A stretch of DNA of 64,000 nucleotides. It comes from Hungatella hathewayi. GTDB taxonomy: Bacteria > Bacillota > Clostridia > Lachnospirales > Lachnospiraceae. This document shows positions 1,248 to 55,819 of this stretch, one piece after another. Position numbers and translations under genes: made by a program. The notes below the pieces were generated by a model, which had not been told where the DNA came from, made no database searches, and saw nothing but the letters and a program-made list of their open reading frames with translations. Position 1 is the stretch's first letter. Each line of letters opens with the position of its first letter. The stretch lies in contig CP102274.1 in NCBI GenBank assembly GCA_025149285.1, positions 1,193,501 to 1,257,500 on the forward strand, written 5' to 3'.

Positions 1248-2639
1248 TTACAAAAAGATAATTTGATATTTCCGGTTCCGCCCAATGCTCTTTGATACAC
1301 GGATTTCCTTAATAATTGACCTCCAGAAGGCCCTCTTTTCCTCATTGTTTAAATTATTATAGATGATCTCAAAATTGCAGTCCAGAACTTGCTTAAGCGG
1401 TTTTAGATTTTTTATTGGTTGTTCCATGTCTGGGAGGGCAGCAAGCTGTTCCTCATACTCCGCGCGGTCTTTTTTATATTCTTCCAGATTGATCACTTCA
1501 TTCAGGTACAAATCCTTCAAACGGTCTAGTTTCCTGCGGATCTTATTCTTTTTTGCGCGATTATCAATTCTCTTGGCTTCCCCTGTCTCAAAATCTACCA
1601 GATAGCCGCTTAACTCTTCCCGGATGTGTTCTAATAAATATTCTTCAATCCTCATTTCTCGAATCTCACCGCCGTTGCTGCATTTTTTGTATGCACGGTA
1701 CTGCAGGCATTCATAGGCAGGATATTTGTAGCGATAGACTTTTCCGCTGGTCCTGCGGCTCACGACGTTAATGTGGCAGCCGCTCATTTTATGACCACAC
1801 TCGTCACAAATCAGGATTCCTGAGAATATGTAGGGATATTTTTGGCTGGAGCGTATCGTGCTGTTGTTGTCAAGGACACGTTGAATGTCCTGATACATCT
1901 CGTCAGAAATTAGGCGCGGACAGTAATTTTCGTTGCCGCGATAACGGCCGGTGTATTTCTCGTTTCGCAGGATACTGTTTTTTAGGTTCTGGATACTCAT
2001 ATTTATTCCGTGGGTTTCCCGCATGTAGTTTACGGTTTTGGCAAGTCCCTGTTCCCGATGGAAGTACTGAATACTATCCAACATCGCGGGTGCCTCGTCA
2101 GAAAAAACTAAATGCTTATTTTGAATCATGTAGCCGCGCGGCACCTTTCCGGTTATAACTTCGCCATGCTCTACCTTGCTTCGGAACACGTCGGCAACAC
2201 GAAGACCGCCGTTCTGTGCCTCCAGCTCCGCCCAGGTCATAGACTGGGCCACGAATGCCCGCCCGTAGGGCGTGGAGGTGTCAAAATAAGGTTGGTCAAT
2301 GGCTGTCCAGGCTACGTTGTATTTATCTAATATAACCTGAGTGTTAAGATAATGGCGAAGACTCCTGAACCATCGATCTAATTTCGTGAATATGATGAGA
2401 TCGACCAGGCCGGCCTTGACATTCCTGATCAGGCGGGTAAAGTCATCGCGATCCAGCTTCTGGCCGGAGACGCCGTCGTCGATATAGGTATCTTGAAGGA
2501 TCATATTCTGGTGATCATCAATATATTTAGTTCCGCGTTCCTTTTGATCACGAATAGAATCACCACGTTCAGCCTGCTCATCTGAGGACACACGGATGTA
2601 GAGCGCTACACGTAAAAGGGTGGTCTGGGGCTTTGTCAT
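1248..2639 (-). CDS. Large serine recombinase (phage integrase)
   Basis: 463 aa. Residues 10-150 form the resolvase catalytic domain, with the nucleophile in YIRVSSDEQ (Ser18) and the arginine-containing motif FTKLDRWFR. A recombinase DNA-binding domain follows (~160-260), then a zinc ribbon with CDECGHKMSG and a second Cys group near YECLQYRAYKKCSN (~275-330), then a coiled-coil region (~355-410). These are the parts expected of the phiC31/TP901-1/TndX class. The ATG at 2639 has AAGGAGATG upstream. It lies beside attL and reads towards it, as expected of the enzyme that put the phage into feoB. Excision would need a directionality factor. Confidence 0.95.
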   Translation of the reverse strand: MTKPQTTLLRVALYIRVSSDEQAERGDSIRDQKERGTKYIDDHQNMILQDTYIDDGVSGQKLDRDDFTRLIRNVKAGLVDLIIFTKLDRWFRSLRHYLNTQVILDKYNVAWTAIDQPYFDTSTPYGRAFVAQSMTWAELEAQNGGLRVADVFRSKVEHGEVITGKVPRGYMIQNKHLVFSDEAPAMLDSIQYFHREQGLAKTVNYMRETHGINMSIQNLKNSILRNEKYTGRYRGNENYCPRLISDEMYQDIQRVLDNNSTIRSSQKYPYIFSGILICDECGHKMSGCHINVVSRRTSGKVYRYKYPAYECLQYRAYKKCSNGGEIREMRIEEYLLEHIREELSGYLVDFETGEAKRIDNRAKKNKIRRKLDRLKDLYLNEVINLEEYKKDRAEYEEQLAALPDMEQPIKNLKPLKQVLDCNFEIIYNNLNNEEKRAFWRSIIKEIRVSKSIGRNRKYQIIFL

Positions 2640-7461: not shown

Positions 7462-7940
7462 TGATTACAGCAACTTTTGAAAGTATCCAGGAAATGCGGG
7501 AGTTTGCAAATGCAGTTTCGACGGTCGAAACTGATGCACTGATGGAATTAGCGAATGGGCCAGATCATTACCGCCAGGCAAATCCGACAATACAGTTTAC
7601 CGGCACGCCTCCGGTACAGCAGGCTGCGTCAGTAACTCCACCAGTACAGCAGGCACCAGTTACCCCTCCACCAGTACAGCAGACGCCGGTAACGCCACCA
7701 GTACAGCAGACTCCACCAGTTACCCCTCCGCCAGTACAGCAAGCACCAGTACAGACGACAGCGCCGTCTTACACGCCTGATGATCTGGCAAGGGCAGCCA
7801 TGACGCTGATGGATTCCGGCAGGCAGGGCGACCTGATTGATCTTCTGGCCCAGTTTGGCGCAGACACCCTTACGCATCTGCAGCCGGAGCAGTACGGAGC
7901 GTTTGCGACTGCTCTTAGAGGATTGGGGGCGCCGATCTAA
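7458..7940 (+). CDS. Phage protein with PVQQ-rich linker, replication block
   Basis: 160 aa in three parts: an N-terminal ~45-residue domain (MMITATFESIQEMREFANAV), a low-complexity linker of repeated TPPVQQ/APV units (~50-100), and a C-terminal helical domain (YTPDDLARAAMTLMDSGRQG onward, ~105-160). The proline repeat is coding. It overlaps both neighbours by 1-4 bases, so it is tightly coupled to the DUF2800 gene. The role is unknown; the domain-linker-domain layout suggests a tether. A 17-nt palindrome shared with two other loci lies inside the gene at 7515-7531. Confidence 0.7.
   Translation: MMITATFESIQEMREFANAVSTVETDALMELANGPDHYRQANPTIQFTGTPPVQQAASVTPPVQQAPVTPPPVQQTPVTPPVQQTPPVTPPPVQQAPVQTTAPSYTPDDLARAAMTLMDSGRQGDLIDLLAQFGADTLTHLQPEQYGAFATALRGLGAPI
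7515..7531. repeat. Palindrome GTTTCGACGGTCGAAAC, copy 1
   Basis: Perfect palindrome with 8-base arms around one G; the symmetry extends to 21 bases (7513-7533). Copies also occur at 17450-17466 (one mismatch) and 45073-45089. Here it codes for VSTVET. Confidence 0.75.
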
Positions 7941-9139
7941 TGGGACATGCTGAGAGAGATCATGCATTATTAAGCGCTTCCGGGGCGCATCGGTGGCTGT
8001 ACTGCACCCCCAGCGCCCGGCTGGAAGAAGGGTTTCCGGATACCACATCGGAAGCAGCCGCAGAAGGCACGCTGGCCCACGAGTTAGCGGAGCTGAAAGT
8101 CAGGAACTATTTCCACGGCGTCGAGTTTGGGAAAAAGAAACTGACGGCGGCTATCAACAAGCTTAAGAAAAAGGAACTGTGGCAGGAAGAGATGATGGGG
8201 TATACAGACGAGTACCTCGATTACATAAAAGGTGTTGCGCTTGCAATGAAGAACCAGCCTTATGTAGCGACCGAAAAGCGGGTTGATTTCTCCGCTTATG
8301 TTCCTGATGGATTCGGGACTGCGGACTGTATCCTGATCTGTGGCAACGTGCTGCACATCATTGACTTTAAATACGGGAAGAACCCTAACGGTCGGGTGGA
8401 GGCGGAAGGGAATCCCCAGCTTGCCCTATATGCTTTGGGGGCCTATGAAATGTACAAGATTCTGTATCCGATCGAGATAATCCGGATGTCAATTGTACAG
8501 CCCCGGCTTTCGGACGGAATCTCTGAGTGGGAGTGCCCGCTGGAAGAACTGCTCTCGTGGGGGCAGTACGTGAAAGGCCGGGCAGAACTTGCGATTAAGG
8601 GCGAGGGTGATTATTTCCCGAGTCCGGAAACATGTAAGTACTGCCGGGCGCGGGGGCAGTGCAGGGCCAGAGCCGATGAGAATGTGAAACTTGCATTTTC
8701 GGAAGATCTCGGGAAACTTCCGCCACTTATCTCTAATGCAGAGGCAGGAGACTACCTGCGGAAGGGTGTCGATGTGGCAAAATGGCTAGAAGCCTTAAAG
8801 GACTATGCCCTTAAGGAGTGTCTGGCAGGAAAAGAAGTTCCTGGCTGGAAGGCCGTGTCAGGCCGTGGTGGCCGTGATTGGACAGATATGGACAAAGCGT
8901 TTGAAACTCTCGTCAAAAGTGGCGTAGCTGAGGAAGCAGTACTGTGGGAAAGAAAGCCGCTGTCACTCGCCCAGGTAGAGACAACGGTAGGGAAGAAGGA
9001 TTTTGCCGACGCTGTAGGCGAGTACGTTGTATGGAAGCCAGGGAAGCCGGCACTGGTAGAAGCATCGGATAAGAGACCGGCAATTACAAATAAATTAACC
9101 GCCGCAGAGGCGTTCAAGGAGGAAAAAGTAAATGAATGA
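7940..9139 (+). CDS. DUF2800 protein, Cas4/RecB-like nuclease fold
   Basis: 399 aa. N-terminal SASGAHRWLYCTPSARLEE; a central nuclease-like part with IIDFKYGKNP (the D and K of a PD-(D/E)XK core, ~residue 137) and GNPQLALYALGAY; then a C-terminal cysteine set CKYCRARGQCRARA (~232-245) typical of the Fe-S nuclease branch. It always travels with DUF2815 and a phage DNA polymerase, as here. Probably a DNA end-processing nuclease in phage replication or recombination. Confidence 0.85.
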   Translation: MGHAERDHALLSASGAHRWLYCTPSARLEEGFPDTTSEAAAEGTLAHELAELKVRNYFHGVEFGKKKLTAAINKLKKKELWQEEMMGYTDEYLDYIKGVALAMKNQPYVATEKRVDFSAYVPDGFGTADCILICGNVLHIIDFKYGKNPNGRVEAEGNPQLALYALGAYEMYKILYPIEIIRMSIVQPRLSDGISEWECPLEELLSWGQYVKGRAELAIKGEGDYFPSPETCKYCRARGQCRARADENVKLAFSEDLGKLPPLISNAEAGDYLRKGVDVAKWLEALKDYALKECLAGKEVPGWKAVSGRGGRDWTDMDKAFETLVKSGVAEEAVLWERKPLSLAQVETTVGKKDFADAVGEYVVWKPGKPALVEASDKRPAITNKLTAAEAFKEEKVNE

Positions 9140-9848
9140 TTTAACCAATGTAACAACCGGAGAAGTGAGATTATCTTATGTACACCTGTTTAAGCCGTAT
9201 GCAGCGATGACAGGACAGGAGGAAAAATACAGTGTAACAGTTCTAGTACCGAAGACGGACGTAGACACCATGGGACGTATTAATGCGGCCCTCGATGCCG
9301 CAAAGCAAAAGGGGATCAGCGAGAAATGGAACGGTCAGTGTCCGCCGATCGTACCCGTGCCCGTCTATGACGGAGACGGGGTTCGTCCTTCTGATGGGAT
9401 GGCCTTCGGCCCAGAGTGTAAGGGCCACTGGGTATTTACAGCCAGTGCCAAGGTGGATTACCGGCCGGAAGTCGTGGACAAGATGGGAAATCCAATCATA
9501 AACCAGTCCGAGGTATACAGCGGTATGTATGGCCGTGTGAATGTATCCTTCTACCCGTATTCTTTCGGCGGAAAGAAGGGAATCGGCTGTGGCCTGGGGC
9601 CGGTTATGAAGACAAGAGACGGAGAATCATTGGGGGGCAGTGCGCCGAGCGCAGCGCAGGCGTTTAATGTCCAGCAAGGACAGGCGACTGCCGGATATGC
9701 AGCGCCTCAGTACGGGGCAGCTATGCCAGCGACTCCGGGTGCTGCTGGTTATGCTCCGCAGACCACAGCACCGTGGAACGGAGCCGGACAGCCAGCAGCA
9801 CAAGCCGCAGCGCCAAGATTACACCCGATTACCGGGCAGCCATATTGA
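9132..9848 (+). CDS. DUF2815, phage single-stranded DNA-binding protein
   Basis: 238 aa. The N-terminal ~170 residues are the DUF2815 domain (TGEVRLSYVHLFKPYAAMTG, ending in GGKKGIGCGLGPVMK). The tail is rich in A, Q, P and G and ends in LHPITGQPY. This tail resembles that of SSB-like proteins, though not acidic. GGAGGAAAAAGTA precedes the ATG, which overlaps the DUF2800 stop. It probably coats ssDNA at the phage replication fork. Confidence 0.85.
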   Translation: MNDLTNVTTGEVRLSYVHLFKPYAAMTGQEEKYSVTVLVPKTDVDTMGRINAALDAAKQKGISEKWNGQCPPIVPVPVYDGDGVRPSDGMAFGPECKGHWVFTASAKVDYRPEVVDKMGNPIINQSEVYSGMYGRVNVSFYPYSFGGKKGIGCGLGPVMKTRDGESLGGSAPSAAQAFNVQQGQATAGYAAPQYGAAMPATPGAAGYAPQTTAPWNGAGQPAAQAAAPRLHPITGQPY

Positions 9849-11877: not shown

Positions 11878-14283
11878 TTGCAGAATAACAGGAAGCTGCA
11901 GATCAGCACGGCCGGGAGCCGGAAATCAACACACTGGCCGCGGTGTGAGATCATGTGGTCCGAATTTACCGAAAAATTGAAAACTCCCATCCGGGGGGCG
12001 GAGACCCTGGAACAGTATCTCGCGCTGCCAAAGGCCAGACAGGACGACCTAAAAGACGTGGGCGGCTTTGTGGGCGGAACGTTTACCGGAGACCGTCGGA
12101 AACCGGAATGTGCGGAAGGCCGGGATCTTTTAACGCTGGATCTGGATAATATTCCAGCGGGGCAGGCCGATGACATCCTGCGGCGCGTGAGCGGTCTTGG
12201 GTGTGCGGCGGCTGTCTACAGCACCCGGAAACATGCCGGATACGCTCCCAGGCTCCGTGTGATCGTTCCACTGGACCGGACGGCCACGGCGGACGAATAC
12301 GAGCCCGCAGCGCGGAAACTGGCGTCACTGATTGGGATTGAGTTCTGTGATCCGACAACCTTCGAAGTCAACAGGCTGATGTACTGGCCGTCGTGCTGCA
12401 TTGACAGCCAGTACTTATACGAGGTGTACGACAACCCGTTCTGCAGTGCTGATGGCTTGCTAGGTATGTATGGTGACTGGAGGGATATCAGCCAGTGGCC
12501 GCAGGTTCCCGGGACCGAAGCAATCGAACGCCGGCGGCTGGCGAAGCAGGAGGATCCCACAACAAAACGGGGCGTGATCGGTGCATTCTGCCGGACATAC
12601 AGTATTACTCAGGCGATGGAAATGTTTATCCCCGGCATGTATGAGGAGACGGCCTCTCCTGGCCGGTATACATACACAGGAGGCGAGACAACGGGTGGTG
12701 CCATCATCTACGATGGGGACCTGTTCCTGTACTCCCACCACTCCCATGATCCGTGCTGTAATCAGCTTGTCAATGCCTACGATCTGGTCCGGCTCCATAT
12801 GTACGGAGACCGGGACGTCGAGGCGAAGGAGGGTACACCAGTCAATAAGCTGCCGTCTTTCGTGGCTATGAGCAGGCTTGCTATGGACGATAAGGCCGTA
12901 GCTGACCTGATAGCCAAAGAGAAGCACGAGGCGGCTGTGGCGGCCTTTGCGGAGCCCACAGAGGGCGTCAGGAGTGAGGACTACAGCTGGTTGAGCGGCC
13001 TCGAAGTAGACGGAAACGGGAACTATAAGAAGACAGTCAATAACATGATTATCGTGCTGCAGAACGATCCCCTGTTGAAAGGCAGGATTGTAACGGACGA
13101 GTTTGCTAACCGGGGGCTTGTCCTGGGAGAACTACCGTGGAGCAAGGAAGTTGGAAGGCGCCAGTGGAGTGATCCGGATGATGCGGGATTCTTCTGGTAT
13201 ATGGAAAATTTCTACCACATTGCCCAGCAGGACAAGCTGGATCGGGCCCTTACCATCGTAGGCGAGCAGAATAAGATTAACGAGGTTAGGGATTACCTAA
13301 AGGGCCTCAAATGGGACGGCGTGAAGCGTGTGGATACCCTGCTGTCGGAGTACTTAGGGGCAGAGGATACCCCATATACAAGGGCCGTAATGCGGAAATC
13401 CCTGTGCGCTGCAGTAGCAAGAGCAGTAGAGGGCGGCGTTAAGTATGATTACATGCCAATCTTTACAGGGCCCCAGGGCCTCGGAAAGAGTTCGTTCCTT
13501 AATATATTGGGAAAGTCGTGGTTCTCCGACAGCCTGACATCGTTCGAGGGCAAGGAGGCCGCAGAACTGATACAGGGAACGTGGATCAACGAGGTCGGGG
13601 AACTGACGGCCATGACGAGGCAGGAGACCTCTGCGGTGAAGCAGTTTTTAAGCAAGCGGGAAGATATCTACAGAGCGGCATACGGCCGCAGGACGGAGCG
13701 GTACCCGAGGCGGTGCGTCTTCTTCGGTACTTCCAATGACAGCGAGTTTCTGAAAGACAATACGGGAAACCGCCGGTTCTGGCCTGTTGACGTTGGCGTA
13801 CATCCGGCAAAGCGGTCAGTATGGAATGATTTACCGGCTGAGGTGGACCAGATCTGGGCGGAAGCCTATATGTACTGGGCGCTGGGAGAGCCGTTATATC
13901 TTTCAAAGGAGATTGAAGCCTTAGCAATCGAACAGCAGGAGCGTCACAGGGAAGCGTCTGGAAAAGAAGGAATGATCCTGGATTTTCTGGAGAAGATGAT
14001 CCCTTCTAATTGGGACCAGATGGATCCTTTAAAGAGGAAAATGTACTGGCAGGGAACACTTCAACTGCCGGAGGGAGCGTTACTGGTTCCGAGGGAAAAA
14101 GTTTGTGCAGTGGAGATCTGGGTGGAGTGTTTTAACGGCGATCCCCGATATCTAAAACGAATGGACAGTACAGAAATCAATAACGTGCTACAGAATATCA
14201 GTGGCTGGAAGCGTAATAAAACTACACGGAGATATGGTCCGTACGGGCAGCAAAAAGGTTTTGAACGGGTGACTACTAACTAG
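11878..14283 (+). CDS. VapE-type primase/helicase (virulence-associated E family)
   Basis: 801 aa from TTG 11878 with AGGAGGGGAGAAC upstream. The N-terminal ~300 residues carry a primase-like part (LLTLDLDNIPAGQADDILRR, ATADEYEPAARKLASLIG). The C-terminal half is a P-loop ATPase of the VapE family, Walker A GPQGLGKSSFLNILG (~530), sensor/arginine region FFGTSNDSEFLKDNTGNRRF (~620). Likely the phage replicative helicase and primase. The end of the gene runs into iteron-like repeats, suggesting the origin lies beside its initiator. Confidence 0.9.
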   Translation: MQNNRKLQISTAGSRKSTHWPRCEIMWSEFTEKLKTPIRGAETLEQYLALPKARQDDLKDVGGFVGGTFTGDRRKPECAEGRDLLTLDLDNIPAGQADDILRRVSGLGCAAAVYSTRKHAGYAPRLRVIVPLDRTATADEYEPAARKLASLIGIEFCDPTTFEVNRLMYWPSCCIDSQYLYEVYDNPFCSADGLLGMYGDWRDISQWPQVPGTEAIERRRLAKQEDPTTKRGVIGAFCRTYSITQAMEMFIPGMYEETASPGRYTYTGGETTGGAIIYDGDLFLYSHHSHDPCCNQLVNAYDLVRLHMYGDRDVEAKEGTPVNKLPSFVAMSRLAMDDKAVADLIAKEKHEAAVAAFAEPTEGVRSEDYSWLSGLEVDGNGNYKKTVNNMIIVLQNDPLLKGRIVTDEFANRGLVLGELPWSKEVGRRQWSDPDDAGFFWYMENFYHIAQQDKLDRALTIVGEQNKINEVRDYLKGLKWDGVKRVDTLLSEYLGAEDTPYTRAVMRKSLCAAVARAVEGGVKYDYMPIFTGPQGLGKSSFLNILGKSWFSDSLTSFEGKEAAELIQGTWINEVGELTAMTRQETSAVKQFLSKREDIYRAAYGRRTERYPRRCVFFGTSNDSEFLKDNTGNRRFWPVDVGVHPAKRSVWNDLPAEVDQIWAEAYMYWALGEPLYLSKEIEALAIEQQERHREASGKEGMILDFLEKMIPSNWDQMDPLKRKMYWQGTLQLPEGALLVPREKVCAVEIWVECFNGDPRYLKRMDSTEINNVLQNISGWKRNKTTRRYGPYGQQKGFERVTTN

Positions 14284-38627: not shown

Positions 38628-39011
38628 ATGAAGCTGACGACCGATTTGACGCTGCGGGAACCGATTTATGAAGGGAAGACTTATAAAGTATTGCCCGGCA
38701 AGATAGAAGGGTATGTGAACGATCTGGAGTCATTAAAACAGGCAATCTATAAAGTGTTGGCTACAGAACAGTTCGAGTATCCCATATACAGTTTCAGTTA
38801 TGGAATCGCTTGGAAAGAACTAATCGGGGAGGAGCAACCCTATGTACGGGCGGAAATGAAGAGAATGATACAGGAAGCACTGTTACGTGATGACAGGATA
38901 CGAGAGGTTGATGGATTCAGCTTTTCTTTTACTGGGGACACGTGCCAGTGCTCTTTTAATGTCTTCAGTATTTATGGAGATATCGAAATAGAAATGGAGG
39001 TGCCTGTATGA
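38628..39011 (+). CDS. DUF2634 baseplate wedge protein (XkdS-like, gp25 fold)
   Basis: 127 aa, GGAGGATAATTTAT upstream. SLKQAIYKVLATEQFEYPIY and YGIAWKELIGEEQPYVRAEM are the gp25-like lysozyme-related wedge pattern. Overlaps the next start by four bases. Confidence 0.88.
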   Translation: MKLTTDLTLREPIYEGKTYKVLPGKIEGYVNDLESLKQAIYKVLATEQFEYPIYSFSYGIAWKELIGEEQPYVRAEMKRMIQEALLRDDRIREVDGFSFSFTGDTCQCSFNVFSIYGDIEIEMEVPV

Positions 39012-40033
39012 CATATGAGGAGCTGTTACAGGCTATGCTGGACAGAGTACCGAGTAACGTGGATAAGAGGGAGGGAAGCATCATATATGATGCTCTGGCA
39101 CCGTGTGCTTACTTTCTGGCACAGCAGAATTTCCAATTGGAAAACTATCTGGATCTGGTCTTTCCGGATACCGCAGTCGGCGAGTATCTGGACAGGGCAG
39201 TAGCTGCTTTCGGAGTGACAAGAAAACCGGCCAGCGCTGCAGTACGAAAAATGATAACAACAGGAGCGGTACCAATAGGCAGCCGCTGGGGAATAAATTC
39301 CCTGGCTTATGTTGTCACGCGTGAACTGGCATCTGGTACGGAGTACGAGGCCGAGTGCGAAACTTCGGGCGACATCGGAAACCAGTATTCAGGATCCGTG
39401 CAGCCGATCTCAAATATAACGGGAGTGACCGCTGAACTGACTGATATTATAACAGCAGGAGCCGACGAGGAAACGGATGGAGCCCTGCGGGAGAGATTCC
39501 TGCAGAAAGTGCGGCTTCCAGCTACGTCAGGAAACGCATACCACTATAAGTTGTGGGCTTTAGATGTGCCGGGTGTCGGAGATGCCAGGGTATTTCCACT
39601 GGACAGTGGCCCTGGTACCGTGACGGTCCTGATCGTGGACAGTGATAAGAATATAGACACATCCCTTGAACGCGCAGTATCGGCTTATATGGAAACGATC
39701 CGCCCGATCGGAGCCAGTGTCACGATCGACAGCCCGTCTTCCATGGCTGTCAACGTCGTGGCTGATGTTACCCTGGACGGAAGCAAAGCAAAAGATGATG
39801 TGCTGCAGGCATTCCGTACCTCTTTAATCACATACCTCAAAGGGCTGGTATTTACAGACTATCGTGTCAGTTATGCAAGGATCGGGAGCCTGCTCCTGGC
39901 CACGGAGGGGGTGCAGGATTATGATAACCTGACGTTGAATGGTTCCATGGCAAATGTGATTATTACTGATAAAGCTATTCCGGTTATAGGAACCGTAGAT
40001 TTTTCGGAGGTGAGGATGTATGGAGCTAATTAA
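39008..40033 (+). CDS. Baseplate J-family protein (XkdT-like)
   Basis: 341 aa. RVPSNVDKREGSIIYDALAP near the start, ETDGALRERFLQKVRLPATS with GNAYHYKLWALDVPGVGDAR in the middle: the baseplate J (gp47-like) signature. Connects wedge to fibres. Confidence 0.92.
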   Translation: MTYEELLQAMLDRVPSNVDKREGSIIYDALAPCAYFLAQQNFQLENYLDLVFPDTAVGEYLDRAVAAFGVTRKPASAAVRKMITTGAVPIGSRWGINSLAYVVTRELASGTEYEAECETSGDIGNQYSGSVQPISNITGVTAELTDIITAGADEETDGALRERFLQKVRLPATSGNAYHYKLWALDVPGVGDARVFPLDSGPGTVTVLIVDSDKNIDTSLERAVSAYMETIRPIGASVTIDSPSSMAVNVVADVTLDGSKAKDDVLQAFRTSLITYLKGLVFTDYRVSYARIGSLLLATEGVQDYDNLTLNGSMANVIITDKAIPVIGTVDFSEVRMYGAN

Positions 40034-40649
40034 GCTGCTTCCGGATTACTATTCCGAAAATGAAACTATGAAGACGCTGCAAAGTATTCTGTCAGAACAG
40101 ACAGATGGCCTTGACATGGAAATGTATAAGACCATCGATAACTGTTTTGTGGGATCTGCCTCGGATGCACTCACACGGTATGAACACTTACTTGGCCTGG
40201 TCCCTGATGCCGCTAAATCTGATCGGTATCGTCGGGAACGCATTAAGGCGAAGATATCCGGAGCCGGAACGACCACCACTTCCCTGATCCAGAATATTGC
40301 GGAAAGCTTTACAAACGCGGCTGTTAATATTGTGGAGAATTTTCCGGCGTATACCATCACTGTTCGGTTTACGGGTACATCAGGCATACCGGGGAATATG
40401 GCAGATATCAAACAGACGATAGAAGAGGCGGTGCCCGCCCATTTGAAGGTGCTGTATGAGTACATTTTTAACACCTATGGAGCAGTCGGAACTTTTACAC
40501 ATGCAGAACTGGCGGCGTATACGCATGAGCGGATCCGTGGCGGACACCTTAAAAATAGAATTCAGGAACTGCAAGCCTATCAGCATGCCGAGCTGGCACA
40601 GCTGACACACAATGAATTATCGAAAGGAGAGTTACCGAATGGCAACTAA
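40020..40649 (+). CDS. DUF2313/YmfQ-type baseplate protein (XkdU-like)
   Basis: 209 aa. KLLPDYYSENETMKTLQSIL and RREYR-like RRERIKAKISGAGTTTTSLI are typical of YmfQ/XkdU. C-terminus has AELAAYTHERI and AELAQLTHNEL repeats. It is the last baseplate gene before the fibre, and its end overlaps the fibre gene by 11 bases. Confidence 0.88.
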   Translation: MELIKLLPDYYSENETMKTLQSILSEQTDGLDMEMYKTIDNCFVGSASDALTRYEHLLGLVPDAAKSDRYRRERIKAKISGAGTTTTSLIQNIAESFTNAAVNIVENFPAYTITVRFTGTSGIPGNMADIKQTIEEAVPAHLKVLYEYIFNTYGAVGTFTHAELAAYTHERIRGGHLKNRIQELQAYQHAELAQLTHNELSKGELPNGN

Positions 40650-41271
40650 TACGACAAATTATAATTTCAAGAAACCAGATGAGAGCGATTTCTACTCAGT
40701 TCAGGATCAGAACAATAACTGGGATAAAGCAGATGCTGCATTGAAAGACCTGGATACACCGACTTTTGAAGATTACTCTGGGAGTACGACGGTCCCAGAT
40801 GCTGCTACAGCAATCAATAACATCAAAAGTAAAGGGAAGTTGTCCACAATAGTAAGTAACGTGAAAGCAGCGTTTAAGGGCGCGTGTCTGATCGGCCAGA
40901 TCGTAAACAACTGCGTGACCAATAATGCCAAATTACCACTTTCAGCAGCCCAGGGCAAGGCTTTGATGGACCTTTACACTCAGTTAAATAGTGATTTAAC
41001 GGCAATGGTTATTGGTAACAAAAAAATTACGTGGAACACATATTGCGTGGTAACCACAGACGAGAATGGAAATTGTAATATACCATTTGGTTATACCTTT
41101 GCAGATACCGATATCTGTGTAATACCTATGGTAGCGTATTCATATGAGCAATGCTCGGCCAGTGTACGCGGAGTTAATACTACCGGATTTTCAGTGTCCG
41201 TAAACGTAGCCGGGCAACATTGGACGAATAAGGAGATCACACTAATCTGGGTCGCCATCGGCAACAAATGA
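40639..41271 (+). CDS. Tail fibre protein with exchangeable C-terminus (cassette A expressed)
   Basis: 210 aa from ATG 40639 with AAAGGAGAGTTACCG upstream; an earlier in-frame start lies inside the previous gene. Residues 1-120 are constant: phage fibre sequences TTNYNFKKPDESDFYSVQDQ and AKLPLSAAQGKALMDLYTQL ending in N-S-D-L. That N-S-D-L is encoded by the recombination site AATAGTGATTTA (40987-40998). Residues 121-210 are the variable receptor-binding part. Three other C-termini that could join at the same codons lie downstream. Expected to determine host binding. Confidence 0.9.
   Translation: MATNTTNYNFKKPDESDFYSVQDQNNNWDKADAALKDLDTPTFEDYSGSTTVPDAATAINNIKSKGKLSTIVSNVKAAFKGACLIGQIVNNCVTNNAKLPLSAAQGKALMDLYTQLNSDLTAMVIGNKKITWNTYCVVTTDENGNCNIPFGYTFADTDICVIPMVAYSYEQCSASVRGVNTTGFSVSVNVAGQHWTNKEITLIWVAIGNK
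40987..40998 (+). repeat. Inversion site A (AATAGTGATTTA)
   Basis: Core of four related sites. Here it lies in a palindrome GTTAAAT-AGTG-ATTTAAC, the arm-spacer-arm form used by tyrosine recombinases. Read in frame it gives N-S-D-L, so exchange keeps the reading frame. Confidence 0.85.
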
Positions 41272-41277
41272 TCATTT
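41266..41277. repeat. Palindrome AAATGATCATTT at the A/B cassette junction
   Basis: Perfect 12-bp palindrome that contains the stop of cassette A (TGA, plus) and part of the stop of cassette B (TAA, minus). A related imperfect sequence, AAAATGATCAATTT, lies between cassettes C and D at 43105-43117. Confidence 0.6.
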
Positions 41278-41551
41278 AAGTTGTGGTGGTAGTAAGGTAT
41301 CCTATGAGATTATTATCCACATACATTTTTACACGGCCATTAGCAATCGTAAAAGTGACCGGATTAGTGGGACATGTCGATACATACCCAACCTGATTAC
41401 TATCAATATGGGCAAGAATCTGTCCGCTGACATTTTCTAGCGATATGGGATTATTCCGGCTGGTAACGACGATTCCCGACGCGGCCGAACCAGTATATAA
41501 TTTGGATTTGAGTTGAGTATTTCCATTTGTAACCTCACCTAAATCACTATT
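41276..41551 (-). other. Silent tail-fibre C-terminal cassette B
   Basis: On the minus strand, from site B, an open frame reads N-S-D-L then 87 residues (GEVTNGNTQLKSKLYTGSAA ... NNLIGYLTTTTT, stop TAA at 41276-41278). It has no start codon or ribosome site. It faces cassette A end to end, and the A and B sites are inverted repeats, so inverting 40987-41551 would fuse it in frame to the fibre. Confidence 0.88.
41540..41551 (-). repeat. Inversion site B
   Basis: Minus-strand AATAGTGATTTA, identical to site A over 12 bases, opposite orientation, 564-bp span between outer edges. Confidence 0.85.
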
Positions 41552-41630
41552 TTACTTAGTAACGAACATGATCGGTGGACGATATAAGGCCCTACCCTTT
41601 ACAATGATCAGTGAAGGAGGGCTTATTTAT

Positions 41631-42650
41631 ATGGTAGAGAAGATACTCGAAAATGTAGTCAATGAGATGGCACCGCATCTCAGCCAGGATCAGCTGGAGC
41701 ACTTAAGCAATGTACTGTACGTCAATTTCCACGGCATGGAAGTCCAGGAGCAGTGCACGGAGCTGACGGCCAGCGGGGAAGACGGCGACGAGGCTAAGAT
41801 CCGAATGTTTGTGGCTTCGAAAAAGGCGGTGAATCGGCAGACCAATACGTTAAAGCAGTACACCCGGGAGATCTGCAATATGCTGGATTTCCTGGGGAAG
41901 CGCTTGGAGGATATCACCGGCATGGATCTGCGGTATTATTACGGTGTGATGAGGGAGCGCCGAGGGATTAAGATGTCAACGATGCAGACACGGCTCCATT
42001 ACCTGTCCAGCTTCTGGGACTTTATGATCACAGAGGATCTGGTGAGCAGCAATCCAGTTAAAAAGGTAGGTCTATTAAAGATCGAGAAGACAATCAAAAA
42101 GCCGTTCTCGGCAGCAGAGATGGAAGCGCTGCGGACCAGCTGCAGCGAGCTGCGGGATCGAGCGCTGGTAGAATTTCTATATAGTACCGGCGTCAGGGTT
42201 TCGGAACTGGTATCGCTTAACGTGGGAGATATTGAGATGGGGAAACAAGAACTTATTGTATATGGTAAGGGTAGCAAGGAGAGAAAGACATATTTGACAG
42301 ATGGAGCTAAGTTCTATCTGCGCCGATATCTTAGGACGCGCTGTGAAAATGAAGGAATGACCATGGAGGAGTTACAGGGCCGGCCGTTGTTCGCGACGCT
42401 GGACCGGCCGCATGGCCGCCTGACGGTAGCCGGGGTACAGTATATGCTCCGCCAGTTGGGGCGGAGAGCCGGAGTTGAGGGAGTGCACCCACATCGATTC
42501 CGTCGGACGATCGCAACGGATCTTTTATCCCGTGGAATGCCGATCGAGCAGGTCAAGGAGTTCCTGGGACACGAGAAGCTAGACACGACAATGATCTATT
42601 GTACCGTTAAGACCGAAAGCGTCCAGGCATCGCATAGAAAATACGCTTAA
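41631..42650 (+). CDS. Tyrosine recombinase (shufflon-type invertase of the fibre locus)
   Basis: 339 aa from ATG 41631 with GAAGGAGGGCTTATTTAT upstream. N-terminal SAM-like DNA-binding domain (~80-165), then the XerC/D-type catalytic domain with the full set of residues: Arg in YSTGVRVSELV (~188), Lys in VYGKGSKERK, HPHRFRRT (~286), LGHEKLDTT and the nucleophile in MIYCTV (~322). The phage already has a serine integrase, and this gene is flanked on both sides by silent fibre cassettes and four short sites. It is therefore the probable enzyme of cassette exchange, like Rci of plasmid shufflons. Confidence 0.9.
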   Translation: MVEKILENVVNEMAPHLSQDQLEHLSNVLYVNFHGMEVQEQCTELTASGEDGDEAKIRMFVASKKAVNRQTNTLKQYTREICNMLDFLGKRLEDITGMDLRYYYGVMRERRGIKMSTMQTRLHYLSSFWDFMITEDLVSSNPVKKVGLLKIEKTIKKPFSAAEMEALRTSCSELRDRALVEFLYSTGVRVSELVSLNVGDIEMGKQELIVYGKGSKERKTYLTDGAKFYLRRYLRTRCENEGMTMEELQGRPLFATLDRPHGRLTVAGVQYMLRQLGRRAGVEGVHPHRFRRTIATDLLSRGMPIEQVKEFLGHEKLDTTMIYCTVKTESVQASHRKYA

Positions 42651-42768
42651 AAACTGTATATTATATGCTGATTTAAGCGGGCTTTTGGGGTCGCTCTATT
42701 AAGTTTACCCTGATGGCCATGCAAGCGCGGGAAACGGGCAAAATGAAGGTGATATGAGCACTGAATGA

Positions 42769-42780
42769 TATAGTGATTTA
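42769..42780 (+). repeat. Inversion site C (TATAGTGATTTA)
   Basis: Differs from sites A and B at the first base. Preceded by TGAATGA, similar to TAAATGA at site D. Same orientation as site A, so A-C recombination would delete the segment between them, including the recombinase. Confidence 0.8.
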
Positions 42781-43104
42781 GCTGTGGCAATCGGCGAGAC
42801 ATCAAATATAACGAGCGCCAGTTTCACTGGCAAGATCATTTGGCAAAATTTAGGAAGACTAACGACACTGAGTTTTGAGCTTACGACAAAAAAAGAACTT
42901 GCTTCTGGGGCTACATACGAGCTTATCTCGATTGCGGAAGGTATACCCAGTAAAAAGGCCAATTGTGTGCTGACGACATCTGATGGTAAACCGTACTACT
43001 GCTATTCGTCGCCTGATGGCAAGTTTTATGTTGCAAACTATACCGGTGCAGCTATCCCTGCCAACAAGGTATTATACGGTCAAATAGCCTTTATTTCCGC
43101 GTAA
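42769..43104 (+). other. Silent tail-fibre C-terminal cassette C
   Basis: Read from site C: Y-S-D-L then 107 residues (AVAIGETSNITSASFTGKII ... NKVLYGQIAFISA, stop TAA). An in-frame stop just before the site and the lack of a ribosome site show it is not expressed alone. It needs inversion to become joined to the fibre gene. The sequence is unlike A and B, so it may give a different receptor specificity. Confidence 0.85.
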
Positions 43105-43110
43105 AAATGA

Positions 43111-43310
43111 TCAATTTACCGTTACTGGTATTGACCATATAATTTCCCATTGTGCTGTTTTGGGATTATACCTTACCAGATTGACACCATTATTATAAAA
43201 TTAACCAGCGATTTTGATCCATCGTTATGTTTAAAAACAAAATATCTTTTTTCGCCGTCAGTGCCGAATTCCATACCATTAACGTTTCCAACGATAGCTA
43301 AATCACTATA
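43111..43310 (-). pseudogene. Silent tail-fibre cassette D, broken by a one-base loss
   Basis: Minus strand from site D: Y-S-D-L AIVGNVNGMEFGTDGEKRYF VFKHNDGSKSLVNF, then the frame is lost at a TTTT run (near 43193-43200) and ends early in IIMVSIW-stop. Adding one T restores YNNGVNLVRYNPKTAQWEII WSIPVTVN and a stop (TGA at 43111-43113), ~62 residues in all. This is decay, a phase-variable tract or a sequencing slip. Confidence 0.75.
43299..43310 (-). repeat. Inversion site D
   Basis: Minus-strand TATAGTGATTTA with the same flank as site C. Inverted relative to A and C. A-D inversion would flip ~2.3 kb including the recombinase. Confidence 0.8.
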
Positions 43311-43343
43311 TCATTTAGTCAACACCACAAAAATGAAAATTCT

Positions 43344-43363
43344 GGCCCTTAAAGGGCCTTTTT
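43344..43363 (+). terminator. Terminator closing the fibre cassette locus
   Basis: GGCCCTT / AAGGGCC hairpin with a T run at 43359-43363, directly after site D. Marks the right border of the variable locus. Confidence 0.8.
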
Positions 43364-43396
43364 ATATACAAAAAATCAAGAAAGGAAGTAAAAATT

Positions 43397-44137
43397 ATGG
43401 AAAAAATCAGAATTGGAAATCAGGAGACTCTTTTTGAGATCGAATCGATCCGTCCGGTATCGGAAAATGTCATGCAGCTTGTATTTCCTGATACCGTGCC
43501 ATCTGTATGGGGGGATATCACCATCTACACGGACGATGGCACGGAAGCAACTACTTTGACAGGTTATGACACAGTGTATCGTGATGAGGGCCAGACTGTG
43601 TATCTGTCTAACGATGGAAGCGTCTATACAGCGCCTGAGACGCCAGAGGGGCCGGGAGAACCGCCGGAGCCATATATTCCAACACTGGAGGAGCTGCAGG
43701 CCGCAAAACGCCGGGAGATATCCGTAGCCTGCCAGCAGATTATCTATCAGGGCGTTAATGTTCAACTATCAGATGGCAGTACCGATCATTTCGCGCTGAC
43801 GATCGAGGACCAGCTTAATCTCTTCGGTAAGCAGATCCAGGTAACCTCTGGTGCTGCTCAAATTGAGTATCATGCAGACGGCCAGCCGTGCCGCTTTTAC
43901 AGCGCGGAAGATATGCAGGCTATCATTACGGCAGCCATGTGGCACGTAAGCTACCACACGACCTACTGTAACGCGATTAATATGTGGATTGCAGGTTGCG
44001 AGACTGCAGAGGAGATACAGGTAATTTTTTATGGTGCAGATGTCCCACCGGCATACCAGTCAGAGGTGCTGCAGTCATACTTGACGCAGATCGCTGCAAT
44101 TGCGGGAGGTAATGCAGATGGCGCTGATCCTGCGTAA
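43397..44137 (+). CDS. Hypothetical phage tail-region protein
   Basis: 246 aa, AAAGGAAGTAAAAATT upstream. N-terminal beta domain (MEKIRIGNQETLFEIESIRP), a proline-rich hinge (ETPEGPGEPPEPYIPTLEEL, ~85-105) and a C-terminal helical domain (CQQIIYQGVNVQLSDGSTDH onward). The layout resembles tail-tip or fibre-assembly accessory proteins (DUF4376-like C-terminus), but I cannot name it with confidence. It lies just outside the invertible locus, so it stays fixed. Confidence 0.6.
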   Translation: MEKIRIGNQETLFEIESIRPVSENVMQLVFPDTVPSVWGDITIYTDDGTEATTLTGYDTVYRDEGQTVYLSNDGSVYTAPETPEGPGEPPEPYIPTLEELQAAKRREISVACQQIIYQGVNVQLSDGSTDHFALTIEDQLNLFGKQIQVTSGAAQIEYHADGQPCRFYSAEDMQAIITAAMWHVSYHTTYCNAINMWIAGCETAEEIQVIFYGADVPPAYQSEVLQSYLTQIAAIAGGNADGADPA

Positions 44138-46042: not shown

Positions 46043-46273
46043 ATGTGTAATATATGTAGATGTCTCTGTGGTAACTGGTGTGGTTGTAGAAATAATTGCT
46101 GTAATAATTGCTGCAGATGCGTATGCAACAATCCCTGTGAGAATAAATGCAATTGCAGCGATAACAATTGCTGTTTCGATCCATGCGCCAGAGAGAGAAA
46201 AGAAGCTTATGAGGCCGGATTTAGAGACGGCTGTAATAATGCTTCCTGCAGGCAGAATAACTGTGGCTGCTAA
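46043..46273 (+). CDS. Extremely Cys-rich small protein (moron)
   Basis: 76 aa with about a third cysteine, in CxxC and CC clusters (CRCLCGNWCGCRNNCCNNCC). The C-terminal third is charged helix (ARERKEAYEAGFRDGC). AAAAGGGGAAATAAATC precedes the ATG. TATAAT sequences (46002 and 46010 areas) and a downstream terminator suggest it is transcribed alone. It could be a metallothionein-like or surface protein. No family is recognised. Confidence 0.65.
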   Translation: MCNICRCLCGNWCGCRNNCCNNCCRCVCNNPCENKCNCSDNNCCFDPCARERKEAYEAGFRDGCNNASCRQNNCGC

Positions 46274-53096: not shown

Positions 53097-55819
53097 GTGC
53101 GACTCGTTCCTAAGTGAAAAGCTTAGGTGTAAATTGGAAAGCGAGGTGAAACAGTATATTTGCAAACTAACAATTCGATTGGTGGAATGATGGGGTAACG
53201 CCCAGAAACGCCAACCTTGATACTCCGACTGGCTCTGCTCAAAAGGCAGATGTTCAGAAGCTCGGTGAAGTCGGCAGAGAGTTACCGTCTTACAGTTGTG
53301 AAAACAACTGTAACGAAAGCTATCCAGAGGTGGATGGTGTAGCCTATATGCCGGAGGTCTACAAAATATCTATGGTGAGAATGACTGTAAAAAGTCTGAC
53401 GAATCCTCGAATGTAAGGGTCTATAAGTAGGCTGTATAGAAATGTGCAGTTATCCAGAGGGATAGTATGTGGGGTAAAGTAAAAATCGAAGATATGAAAT
53501 ACCCTATGCCGTTACAGGCGGGATCAAGCATACAGGTTCAGAGAGGACACCTACGGGTATATGTATAGATAGAATTGTTGGAACGAGGAAAGCAGAAAAG
53601 CTAACCAAAGGTTAGTTAACGCAGGAAATCATAACTGCGTGAGTTTTCTGTGAGAGCGATGGCACGACCGTTGATGTTCCTGTAATGGGAACGGAGGAAC
53701 AGCCATTAGCCGTCTATGATTTTCAAATAATAACAAAGTAAACATTCACAGCTTCGAGTATGACAAAGAAAATCAAATCCGAAAGGAGGAGATGCCTGTG
53801 ACAACTACGAAGCAGAAAAAGAACTCAAAAATACGCCATTTGGAGTATTATGACTTGCAAAATACGCTTGACACATTGTACGCAGATAGCGGGCGTGGGA
53901 AGATTTTCAATAATCTCATGCCACTCATTGAGAGCGAAGAAAACATTCGCCTTGCTTATCGAAACATAAAACGCAATTCTGGAAGCAATACAAGCGGAAT
54001 AGACAGGCTAACGATTAAGGATATTGAAAAGATTCCCGAAACAAAGTTTGTTGAAATTGTGAGAAAGAAACTCCAATGGTATAAACCCAAAGCAGTAAGA
54101 AGAGTTGAAATTCCAAAACCGAACGGAAAGTTAAGACCGCTCGGTATCCCTGCGATATGGGATAGGATAGTCCAACAATGTATTTTGCAAATCCTTGAAC
54201 CTATCTGTGAAGCTAAATTCAGCGACAGAAGCAATGGGTTTCGACCGAACAGGTCAGCAGAGCACGCTATTGCACAAGCATATGCGTTTATGCAAAAATC
54301 CCATCTGCACTTTGTTGTGGACATTGATATTAAAGGATTCTTCGATAATGTCAACCACAGCAAGCTGATAAAGCAGATGTGGAACATAGGAATACAGGAC
54401 AAAAAGTTGCTATGTGTGATTAAGGAGATGCTAAAAGCTCCGATTGTTTTGCCAAACGGCGACACAATTTACCCCCAGAAAGGAACGCCGCAAGGCGGAA
54501 TCCTATCGCCTCTACTGTCCAACATTGTTCTTAATGAACTGGACTGGTGGATAATAAGCCAGTGGGAGAAACAACCTGCCCATAATGTTCGTGACCATAT
54601 CACGAAAACAGGAGCAATCCACAGAGGGCGAGCTTATGACGCATTTCGTAAATCGGGATTAAAAGAGATGCACATGGTAAGATACGCTGACGATTTTAAG
54701 ATATTTTGCGCTACCCGAAAAGATGCCGACAGAGCATATCATGCAACGAAGGCGTGGCTTCAGGAGCGATTGAAGCTGGAAATCAGCGAAGAAAAGTCTA
54801 AAATCGTCAATCTGAAAAAAGGCTATTCGGAATTTCTTGGGTTTAAGCTCACTCTTATGAAAAAAGGGGCGTCCTATGTTGTCAAATCGCATATATGCGA
54901 CAAAGCAAAGCGCCGAGAAACGGACAAACTGAAAGGTCAAATCAAAAAGATAGCACATCCCAAAAACGATGAGGAACGAGCTACTCTTATCAACGAATAC
55001 AATTCTATGATTATGGGTATGCATAACTATTTTCAGATTGCAACCTGTGTGAGTTCGGATTTCGCAGATATGGGGCGAGAAGTTGATGTTGTGAAACTAA
55101 GCCAATTAAAGCGAAAGGCACTTTCCGCAAAAGGAGATTACAAAGGATTTTCGTTCATTGAAAAGAAATACGGAAAAAGCAAACAAATCCGATTCTATAG
55201 TGGCAAACCTTTGATACCCGTTGCTTATGTTAAGCACAAAAATCCAATGTGGAAGAAAAAATCGGTAGGCAAATACACGTCAGAGGGCAGACGAGAAATT
55301 CATAAAAATCTTGGCATAGATACCAGAACAATGCTTCTCCTTATGAGAACAAAGGAAGTAGGTCGAAGTGTTGAGTATATGGATAACCGAATTTCTCTCT
55401 ATGTGGCACAGTACGGAAAATGTGCAATTACAGGGAAAATACTGGAATTACACGAAATTCATTGTCACCACAAAAAGCCTGTCAGTCAAGGTGGAGACGA
55501 CAGATACGAAAACTTGATTATTTTACACAAGGATATACACCGATTGCTACACGCAACAAAAGAAGAAACAATCAAGGCTTACCTCTCACAACTACAGCTC
55601 ACCTACAAACAAAAGGCAAAGCTGAACAAGCTACGCCAACTGGCAAATATGCAAGCCATCTAATATTAAAATGAGTTTCTTTACTGCTCGAAAATTGTAA
55701 GTTTACTTTAGTTAATACCGAATCATAAACGGTGGAACGCCGTGTGCGGTGAAAGTCGCACGCACGGTGTGGAGCGGGGGAAAATCCGAAGATAACTTCA
55801 AAGGATTACCTATCGCTAT
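53097..55819 (+). mobile_element. Group II intron (2723 nt) in the methylase-helicase gene
   Basis: 5' end GTGCGAC at 53097 fits the GUGYG rule. Domain V is at ~55737-55772 (core CCGTGTGCGGTGAAAGTCGC then ACGCACGG). Domain VI follows and the intron ends ...CGCTAT, an AY end. Removing 53097-55819 joins ATC-G|CA-AAG in frame. Bases 53114-53791 are the domain I-III ribozyme part and domain IV carries the reverse transcriptase. It sits inside a conserved methylase motif region, where it must splice for the host gene to work. Confidence 0.92.
53792..55663 (+). CDS. ltrA: Group II intron reverse transcriptase/maturase with HNH endonuclease
   Basis: 623 aa, GAAAGGAGGAG upstream (a GTG six bases on is an alternative start). 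RT palm with the RFRPNRSAEH-type segment GFRPNRSAEHAIAQAY, GTPQGGILSPLLSN and catalytic YADD in MVRYADDFKIF (~296). The thumb/maturase domain covers ~350-500 and a C-terminal HNH endonuclease (CAITGKILELHEIHCHHKKP, then LIILHKDIHRLLHA) covers ~545-605. It promotes splicing and retrohoming. All key motifs are intact, so it may be mobile. Confidence 0.94.
   Translation: MPVTTTKQKKNSKIRHLEYYDLQNTLDTLYADSGRGKIFNNLMPLIESEENIRLAYRNIKRNSGSNTSGIDRLTIKDIEKIPETKFVEIVRKKLQWYKPKAVRRVEIPKPNGKLRPLGIPAIWDRIVQQCILQILEPICEAKFSDRSNGFRPNRSAEHAIAQAYAFMQKSHLHFVVDIDIKGFFDNVNHSKLIKQMWNIGIQDKKLLCVIKEMLKAPIVLPNGDTIYPQKGTPQGGILSPLLSNIVLNELDWWIISQWEKQPAHNVRDHITKTGAIHRGRAYDAFRKSGLKEMHMVRYADDFKIFCATRKDADRAYHATKAWLQERLKLEISEEKSKIVNLKKGYSEFLGFKLTLMKKGASYVVKSHICDKAKRRETDKLKGQIKKIAHPKNDEERATLINEYNSMIMGMHNYFQIATCVSSDFADMGREVDVVKLSQLKRKALSAKGDYKGFSFIEKKYGKSKQIRFYSGKPLIPVAYVKHKNPMWKKKSVGKYTSEGRREIHKNLGIDTRTMLLLMRTKEVGRSVEYMDNRISLYVAQYGKCAITGKILELHEIHCHHKKPVSQGGDDRYENLIILHKDIHRLLHATKEETIKAYLSQLQLTYKQKAKLNKLRQLANMQAI

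What the first reader, a model, noticed from the sequence alone, without database searches (positions are those of the whole stretch)
40639..43363. Shufflon-like tail-fibre switch with four C-terminal cassettes around a tyrosine recombinase
The fibre gene's constant part ends in N-S-D-L, encoded by AATAGTGATTTA. The same 12-mer (first base variable) begins three other C-terminal frames that lack start codons: B (minus, 41276-41551), C (plus, 42769-43104) and D (minus, 43111-43310). A complete tyrosine recombinase sits between B and C although the phage integrates by a serine enzyme. Site A is a palindrome GTTAAAT-AGTG-ATTTAAC. Adjacent sites are inverted, so each exchange keeps the frame. This is a phage host-range switch built like the R64 shufflon.
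Basis: partly seen in the sequence, partly recalled or inferred. Interest (0 to 1): 0.93.

Follow-up and report, generated by a model that had tools for sequence, protein, structure and literature searches.

The report
Phage tail-fibre tip shuffling switch
This phage, dormant in a bacterial chromosome, keeps four interchangeable tips for one tail fibre around a gene for a predicted DNA-flipping enzyme, and database proteins carry the same fibre base joined to each of the four tips (the fourth in an intact form), so the phage likely switches which bacteria it can attach to.

Summary
Four ATAGTGATTTA sites (+,-,+,-) carry four fibre C-termini around an intact Xer-type tyrosine recombinase. Correction: cassette D is out of frame here after 45 codons; intact homologues exist.

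Three results go further. (1) A sister prophage in the same chromosome, with a 98%-identical recombinase but another fibre base, has segment C-D inverted (98.8% identity). (2) All 120 database proteins listed (of 1681 found) keep this fibre base (>=85%) up to the site and then carry 34 tip families, among them base+B (100%/100%), base+C (100%/99%) and base+intact D (100%/98%). (3) Distant homologues show the same '+ - recombinase + -' layout with site words of their own (28 of 74 loci; controls 0 of 416). One clade shuffles type I restriction hsdS genes instead.

It works like the R64 shufflon, but the enzyme is not a recognisable Rci relative. The closest published phage case is the Bifidobacterium Rin shufflon; here the recombinase lies inside the shuffled array, cassettes are paired tail to tail, and site word and hosts differ. 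Inversion within one culture and a receptor role of the tips are inferred. New variant of a known kind.

The parts
40639..40986 (+). constant N-terminal part of the tail fibre gene (116 codons)
   Evidence: kept at >=85% identity in all 120 listed database relatives; weak Phage_fiber_rpt match (24.1 bits, cut-off 27)
40978..40998 (+). site A (core ATAGTGATTTA at 40988-40998)
40987..41271 (+). cassette A, joined to the constant part in this copy (94 codons)
41266..41277 (.). palindrome AAATGATCATTT where cassettes A and B meet
41276..41551 (-). cassette B, silent, no start codon (91 codons)
   Evidence: found joined to this constant part in P0034 and P0043
41540..41560 (-). site B
41568..42650 (+). 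Xer-type tyrosine recombinase, predicted shufflon invertase (alternative start 41631)
42760..42783 (+). site C
42769..43104 (+). cassette C, silent, in frame from the site (111 codons)
   Evidence: found joined to this constant part in P0026, P0018, P0093 and P0120
43105..43116 (.). near-palindrome AAATGATCAATT where cassettes C and D meet
43173..43310 (-). cassette D, silent; open for 45 codons only, homology runs on to about 43111
43296..43319 (-). site D
43344..43358 (+). terminator-like stem-loop just outside site D
   Evidence: 2 such found, 2.4 expected from shuffles: weak
40020..40649 (+). Mu Gp48-like tail gene upstream of the fibre
39008..40033 (+). baseplate J-like gene upstream
1248..2639 (-). 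serine-integrase-like protein of the prophage

Best explanation
The locus is a tail-fibre switch of the shufflon type: four inverted sites in one reading frame flank four alternative fibre C-termini (one out of frame in this copy) around a tyrosine recombinase gene, and the recombinase is predicted to invert the DNA between sites so that another C-terminus is read onto the constant N-terminus. Shown: sites, frames, an intact recombinase gene, an inverted sister copy in the same chromosome, and natural proteins that join this constant part to B, C and intact D. Inferred: that this recombinase makes the exchanges, that they happen while one lysogen or phage stock grows, and that the tips bind receptors. 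The segments A|B and C|D each hold two cassettes tail to tail. Inversions A-B, C-D, A-D and B-C would between them bring each of the four cassettes to the constant part; B-C inversion would turn the recombinase gene itself. The crossover lies within ATAGTGATTT: the base before it (codon N or Y) stays with the outer flank, and in L020/L021 the eleventh base goes with the cassette. In this copy the D form would be a truncated fibre.
For: Four-site layout and shared frame. L009, sister prophage in the same chromosome: C-D segment inverted, 98.8% over 563 bp, neighbours collinear. Constant 100% + B 100% (P0034, 11 contigs), constant 100% + C 99% (P0026, 20 contigs), constant 100% + D 98% against L009's D (P0038, 15 contigs), beside the A form P0001 (9 contigs); all 120 listed relatives change after NSDL at the site, 34 tip families. 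L084: constant part in frame with D, cassette A at the far site. L020/L021: flanks 99.4% and 99.2% alike, A-B content different, change inside the site. Further inversions or side changes in other subfamilies: L069/L144, L142/L144, L078/L169. Exact '+ - R + -' order in 28 of 74 homologous loci against 0 of 86 other stretches and 0 of 330 shuffles; all four frames open >=40 codons in one reading in 22 of 25 fibre-type loci against 59 of 5000 shifted controls.
Against: No reads: switching within one culture is not seen, and the database proteins may come from different strains. 46 of 74 loci with good flanks lack the exact layout by the strict detector; some are members it misses (L009, L018), many show no site family. 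D is broken here. L084 pairs D with A, which exchanges at the sites alone cannot give, so another route of cassette mixing exists. Sites A/C and B/D are in direct order, so deletion would have to be avoided by a bias not shown here. Receptor binding untested; this fibre hits only PHROGs of unknown function.
Confidence: 0.93

Rival explanations
1. Fibre C-termini are exchanged between phages by ordinary homologous or horizontal recombination at a conserved codon run; the parked cassettes and the recombinase are relics or serve something else.
For: L084's D|A pairing needs exchange outside the sites. D is decayed in this copy. Database isomers may come from different strains.
Against: The inverted C-D segment of L009 with breakpoints at the sites; parked cassettes B and C intact in the one shared frame; each cassette is 97-100% identical between parked and joined forms for B, C and L009's D at their best matches; the site-recombinase-site order recurs with different site words.
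Confidence: 0.05
2. The array once shuffled but is now frozen in the A state in this lysogen, because the enzyme is not expressed or D has decayed.
For: D is out of frame; no read data.
Against: Recombinase intact and 98% identical to the sister copy whose C-D segment is inverted; cassettes A-C intact; exact A, B and C forms with a 100% constant part in the database.
Confidence: 0.1
3. The recombinase is an integrase or dimer resolvase of the prophage and its place among the repeats is coincidence.
For: Matches XerA, XerC and XerD models, all below their cut-offs, and integrase PHROGs.
Against: A serine-integrase-like gene is present; homologues down to 35% identity sit in the same four-site order with other site words and, in one clade, among hsdS genes.
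Confidence: 0.015
4. A diversity-generating retroelement changes the fibre end.
For: A reverse transcriptase gene (RVT_1 + HNH) lies at 53792-55663.
Against: It carries an HNH domain as group II intron proteins do (recalled) and lies 10 kb away; the cassettes are unrelated (16-22% identity), not mutated copies, and a whole segment is inverted.
Confidence: 0.005

Closest known systems
Rin shufflon of Bifidobacterium prophages (PMC6109161: abstract, passages and section 8 read) and its Eggerthella lenta counterpart (PMC8778435: passages read)
   Same: Prophage tyrosine recombinase without arm domain, constant RBP part plus several C-terminal cassettes, short asymmetric sites, natural isomers
   Different: There the recombinase flanks the array on one side, variable genes are in tandem, and site words are TTCCCTAACCC or ttccgtat. 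Here the recombinase lies between two tail-to-tail cassette pairs and the site word is ATAGTGATTTA; hosts are Lachnospiraceae. Relationship of the enzymes not tested.
R64 shufflon (Rci; PMC5430464 passages, PMC11852207 abstract and first of five parts read; R64 rci compared)
   Same: Several inverted sites, segments with two opposed partial ORFs, constant N-terminus with alternative C-termini, asymmetric site with a variable left arm
   Different: Pilus adhesin on a plasmid, rci beside the array; Rci has an extra C-terminal domain and its own site word, and shows only a weak match to this recombinase (22% over 146 residues, E 0.02)
Type I restriction hsdS inversion loci with a tyrosine recombinase, e.g. 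PsrA/cod of Streptococcus pneumoniae (PMC7096588: abstract and passages read)
   Same: Recombinase gene within the locus, several inverted repeats, target domains swapped; hsdS relatives of this very recombinase family are found here with the same four-site layout
   Different: Target is hsdS, not a fibre; PsrA itself was not compared
Mu Gin, P1 Cin and p15B Min (as described in PMC6109161, section 8; otherwise recalled)
   Same: Fibre tip choice by DNA inversion in a phage
   Different: Serine recombinases; here a tyrosine recombinase

Membership tests
Shufflon (multiple-inversion system), in the general sense | three or more recombination sites in both orientations, separating alternative coding ends | tested here: met
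   four sites + - + -, four cassettes in one frame
Shufflon (multiple-inversion system), in the general sense | a recombinase gene at the locus | tested here: met
   41568-42650
Shufflon (multiple-inversion system), in the general sense | isomers exist in nature with breakpoints at the sites | tested here: met
Shufflon (multiple-inversion system), in the general sense | inversion within a clonal population, dependent on the recombinase | not testable with these tools
   needs reads or experiments
R64/Rci shufflon family | recombinase homologous to Rci | tested here: not met
   22% over 146 residues, E 0.02 for one comparison
R64/Rci shufflon family | extra C-terminal domain after the catalytic part | tested here: not met
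   the protein ends 16 residues after Y344
Rin-type phage shufflon | tyrosine recombinase of XerD-like make-up without arm-binding domain | tested here: met
   XerA/C/D-like over residues 81-358 and a SAM-like N-domain; the first ~80 residues are unassigned
Rin-type phage shufflon | recombinase at one end of a tandem array of variable genes | tested here: not met
   recombinase between sites B and C; cassettes in opposed pairs
Rin-type phage shufflon | recombinase belongs to the Rin clade | not tested
   no named Rin sequence was fetched
Serine-invertase fibre switch (Gin/Cin/Min) | serine recombinase at the fibre locus | tested here: not met
   the enzyme at the locus is a Phage_integrase-family tyrosine recombinase; the serine enzyme found lies at 1248-2639

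The most novel reading that the evidence does not exclude
One Xer-derived recombinase lineage runs two sides of an arms race in Lachnospiraceae with the same four-site device: phages shuffle fibre tips with it, and restriction loci shuffle hsdS with it. Its sites sit in the codons of a short L-N-x-x-L-like motif in both targets. Because the recombinase lies between sites B and C it flips its own gene against the late operon and so switches itself on and off, and it acts in trans on orphan two-site fibres of other prophages in the same chromosome (L094).
Probability: 0.35. Interest if true: 0.82.

Novelty: new variant of a known kind. Interest (0 to 1): 0.68.

Why it matters
If it works as proposed, temperate phages of Lachnospiraceae have a built-in way to change the fibre tip, with 34 tip families seen on this one constant part among 120 listed proteins. 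It extends tyrosine-recombinase phage shufflons from the actinobacterial prophages in print to a broad clostridial family with a distinct, self-contained architecture, and ties that family by enzyme, site format and layout to shuffling restriction loci, which act against phages. Single consensus assemblies of such phages would hide most of their fibre repertoire.

Tried and rejected
Diversity-generating retroelement: rejected. Rci membership: rejected. Frozen relic: rejected for A-C as a family-wide reading, kept for D in this copy. L084 as a simple deletion product of the window's order: rejected, because A|B and C|D keep their pairing under any exchange at the sites while L084 pairs D|A. Contig ends as proof of live shuffling: L083 ends at the core of site A and L085 four bases after it, but provirus trimming and short-read assembly can end contigs there too, so this is only a hint.

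Searches that gave nothing or little: DNA search of 40500-43500 in INPHARED, no match; protein search in INPHARED, 518 records, none at 60% identity or more; PLSDB, 4606 records, none at 60% or more. The clade's site matrix found few sites near the distant recombinases, which use other words. The second genome of the genus, G046, has no match. Promoter scan: 12 promoter-like sites against 6.3 expected, not used.

Literature: ten searches. No title or abstract opening in the listings described a tyrosine-recombinase fibre shufflon in Lachnospiraceae; two searches gave 0 papers. Most subscription papers and all preprints are missing from the library. Papers opened: PMC6109161 (abstract, passages, section 8), PMC8778435, PMC5903667, PMC7096588, PMC5430464, PMC6755750, PMC8987985 (passages only), PMC11852207 (abstract and part 1 of 5).
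Full report
What is there. In a Mu-like tail operon (baseplate J 39008-40033, Gp48-like 40020-40649) the next gene encodes a 210-residue fibre (40639-41271). Its codons 117-120 (N-S-D-L) cover the word ATAGTGATTTA. The word occurs four times in the window and nowhere else in it, even with one mismatch: + 40988, - 41540, + 42770, - 43299. Inverted pairs of sites extend to 21-28 bp at 79-96%. A matrix from 23 sites of this clade scores the four at 31-36 bits; the next place scores 13.1. Those 23 sites include these four and were picked for at most one mismatch, so their uniformity is partly by selection; sites of L018 and L033 differ in the last four bases. Each site begins an open frame in the same phase: A 94, B 91, C 111, D 45 codons; only the site in the fibre gene has a long open frame upstream. 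D is out of frame in this copy; homologues in L009 and L084 are open for 66 codons. A, B, C and L009's intact D are 16-22% identical to each other. Between B and C lies a complete Xer-like recombinase. A serine-integrase-like gene lies at 1248-2639.

Natural isomers. The same chromosome holds a second copy of the recombinase at 98%. There (L009) the segment between sites C and D is inverted, 98.8% over 563 bp, while the recombinase stretch (97.5%) and the downstream gene (84.9%) are collinear. That prophage has another fibre constant part and other A and B cassettes, so the module sits behind a different fibre. In viral contigs L020 and L021 the flanks are 99.4% and 99.2% identical but the A-B content differs, with the change inside the site. 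A viral contig of a 90% identical phage (L084) has this constant part in frame with D (87.5% to L009's D) and cassette A (85%) at the far site. L069/L144, L142/L144 and L078/L169 show inversions or side changes in other subfamilies.

A search with the fibre gave 1681 relatives, the best 120 listed. All 120 keep the constant part (>=85%) followed by NSDL; by a 35% identity / 60% length rule their C-termini form 34 families. Families matching the window: A 16 proteins, D 16, C 4, B 2. Closest: P0034 (constant 100%, B 100%, 11 contigs), P0026 (100%, C 99%, 20 contigs), P0038 (100%, L009's D 98%, 15 contigs), and P0001, the window's own A form (9 contigs). Cassettes of the other two prophages of the chromosome also occur on this constant part (P0062 100%/100%; P0017 100%/96%). 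The second prophage's fibre behaves alike: of 439 relatives 120 are listed, 119 were examined, and 103 keep its constant part (>=80%) to within three residues of the site, with 43 tip families; 66 of the 103 then read NSDL, but 23 read DGKV, DSAI or DSVI, so some of that family change without this site.

Crossover. When C or D is joined to the constant part the junction reads NSD, while their parked copies read YSD, so the base before the core stays with the outer flank. In L020/L021 the eleventh base goes with the cassette. The exchange therefore lies within ATAGTGATTT.

A family. Around 110 recombinase loci I looked for any 10-mer present at least three times, on both strands, within 3.5 kb. 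The exact order + - recombinase + - appears in 28 of 74 loci with at least 2.5 kb on both sides (L163 duplicates L078); controls give 0 of 86 stretches elsewhere (55 window, 31 other pieces of this genome) and 0 of 330 shuffles. The other 46 of 74 do not show it; L009 and L018 are members the strict rule misses, many others show no site family. The site word changes between subfamilies but often keeps a TAAAY-N4-RTTTA form, with AGTG, GATA, AATA or GAGA at the centre; by the genetic code it reads as an L-N-x-x-L-like run. In 22 of 25 loci not classed as hsdS, all four sites open at least 40 codons in one shared reading, against 59 of 5000 shifted controls. Fibre constant parts hit tail or tail-fibre PHROGs in 6 of 9 tested; this window's, L026's and L144's hit families of unknown function only.

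Link to restriction systems. Fourteen of the 110 loci hold an hsdS-like gene by similarity to three query genes; those three are Methylase_S by Pfam. On a tree of 96 recombinases the hsdS label needs 2 changes against 13.3 in shuffles (quick method, many near-copies). Seven hsdS loci have the exact four-site layout.

Two-site forms. L084 and a third prophage of this chromosome (L094) have two opposed sites and two cassettes but no recombinase beside them in the stretch held. The enzyme of the other prophages could flip L094 in trans; untested. L084's D|A pairing cannot come from exchanges at these sites alone. The palindrome at cassette tails (AWTGATCAWT in 10 of 22 segments of the close clade, and only at the two junctions in the whole window) is a candidate place for such mixing; this is a guess.

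Self-flipping enzyme. B-C inversion would turn the recombinase gene. Its direction agrees with the fibre in 17 of 22 scored loci and is opposite in 5 (L026, L072, L078, L122, L169), and also in L018 by inspection. L072 and L073 are neighbours on the tree with opposite directions. If the gene is read from the late operon it would silence itself by flipping; inference.

Comparison. It works like the R64 and Rin shufflons. It is a member of neither as tested: the R64 enzyme shows only a weak match, and Rin differs in layout and site word, its clade not being tested. PsrA of pneumococcus is a studied analogue on hsdS with the recombinase inside the locus.

Distribution and limits. 40 of 397 genomes of the host family have a recombinase relative at E <= 1e-60, hsdS types included. 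No INPHARED record reaches 60%. No reads were available, so switching within one culture is not shown; receptor binding is inferred from position and tip diversity; the sources of P0034, P0026 and P0038 are not disclosed, so their genomic surroundings were not seen.

Noticed in passing
L094 (G000:C1:4340000-4358000), sites 12563(+) and 13237(-), fibre gene 12951-13937(-): Third prophage of the same chromosome: the same site word in a fibre gene, two opposed cassettes (95 and 126 codons), no recombinase beside them; a possible trans target.
   Followed up: partly
window 41266-41277 and 43105-43116: TGATCA palindromes where two unrelated cassettes meet tail to tail; AWTGATCAWT in 10 of 22 such segments of the close clade and at only these two places in the whole window. 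Role unknown.
   Followed up: partly
L070 (same as L139), 7576-9760: A related recombinase with seven repeat positions all on its 3' side by the detector, closer to an R64 or Rin layout.
   Followed up: no
L028 6556-11610 and L027 640-3694: Two recombinase copies in one locus: tandem with repeated cassettes (L028), convergent (L027); duplication or assembly artefact.
   Followed up: no
L086, L087: Related phages (baseplate J 62%) with similarity to part of the fibre constant region but no site at matrix score 15 or more in the stretch held.
   Followed up: no
window 53792-55663 (+): Reverse transcriptase with HNH domain, group II intron-like.
   Followed up: no
window 46043-46273 (+): 76-residue, very cysteine-rich open frame near the end of the phage late genes; may be host.
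   Followed up: no
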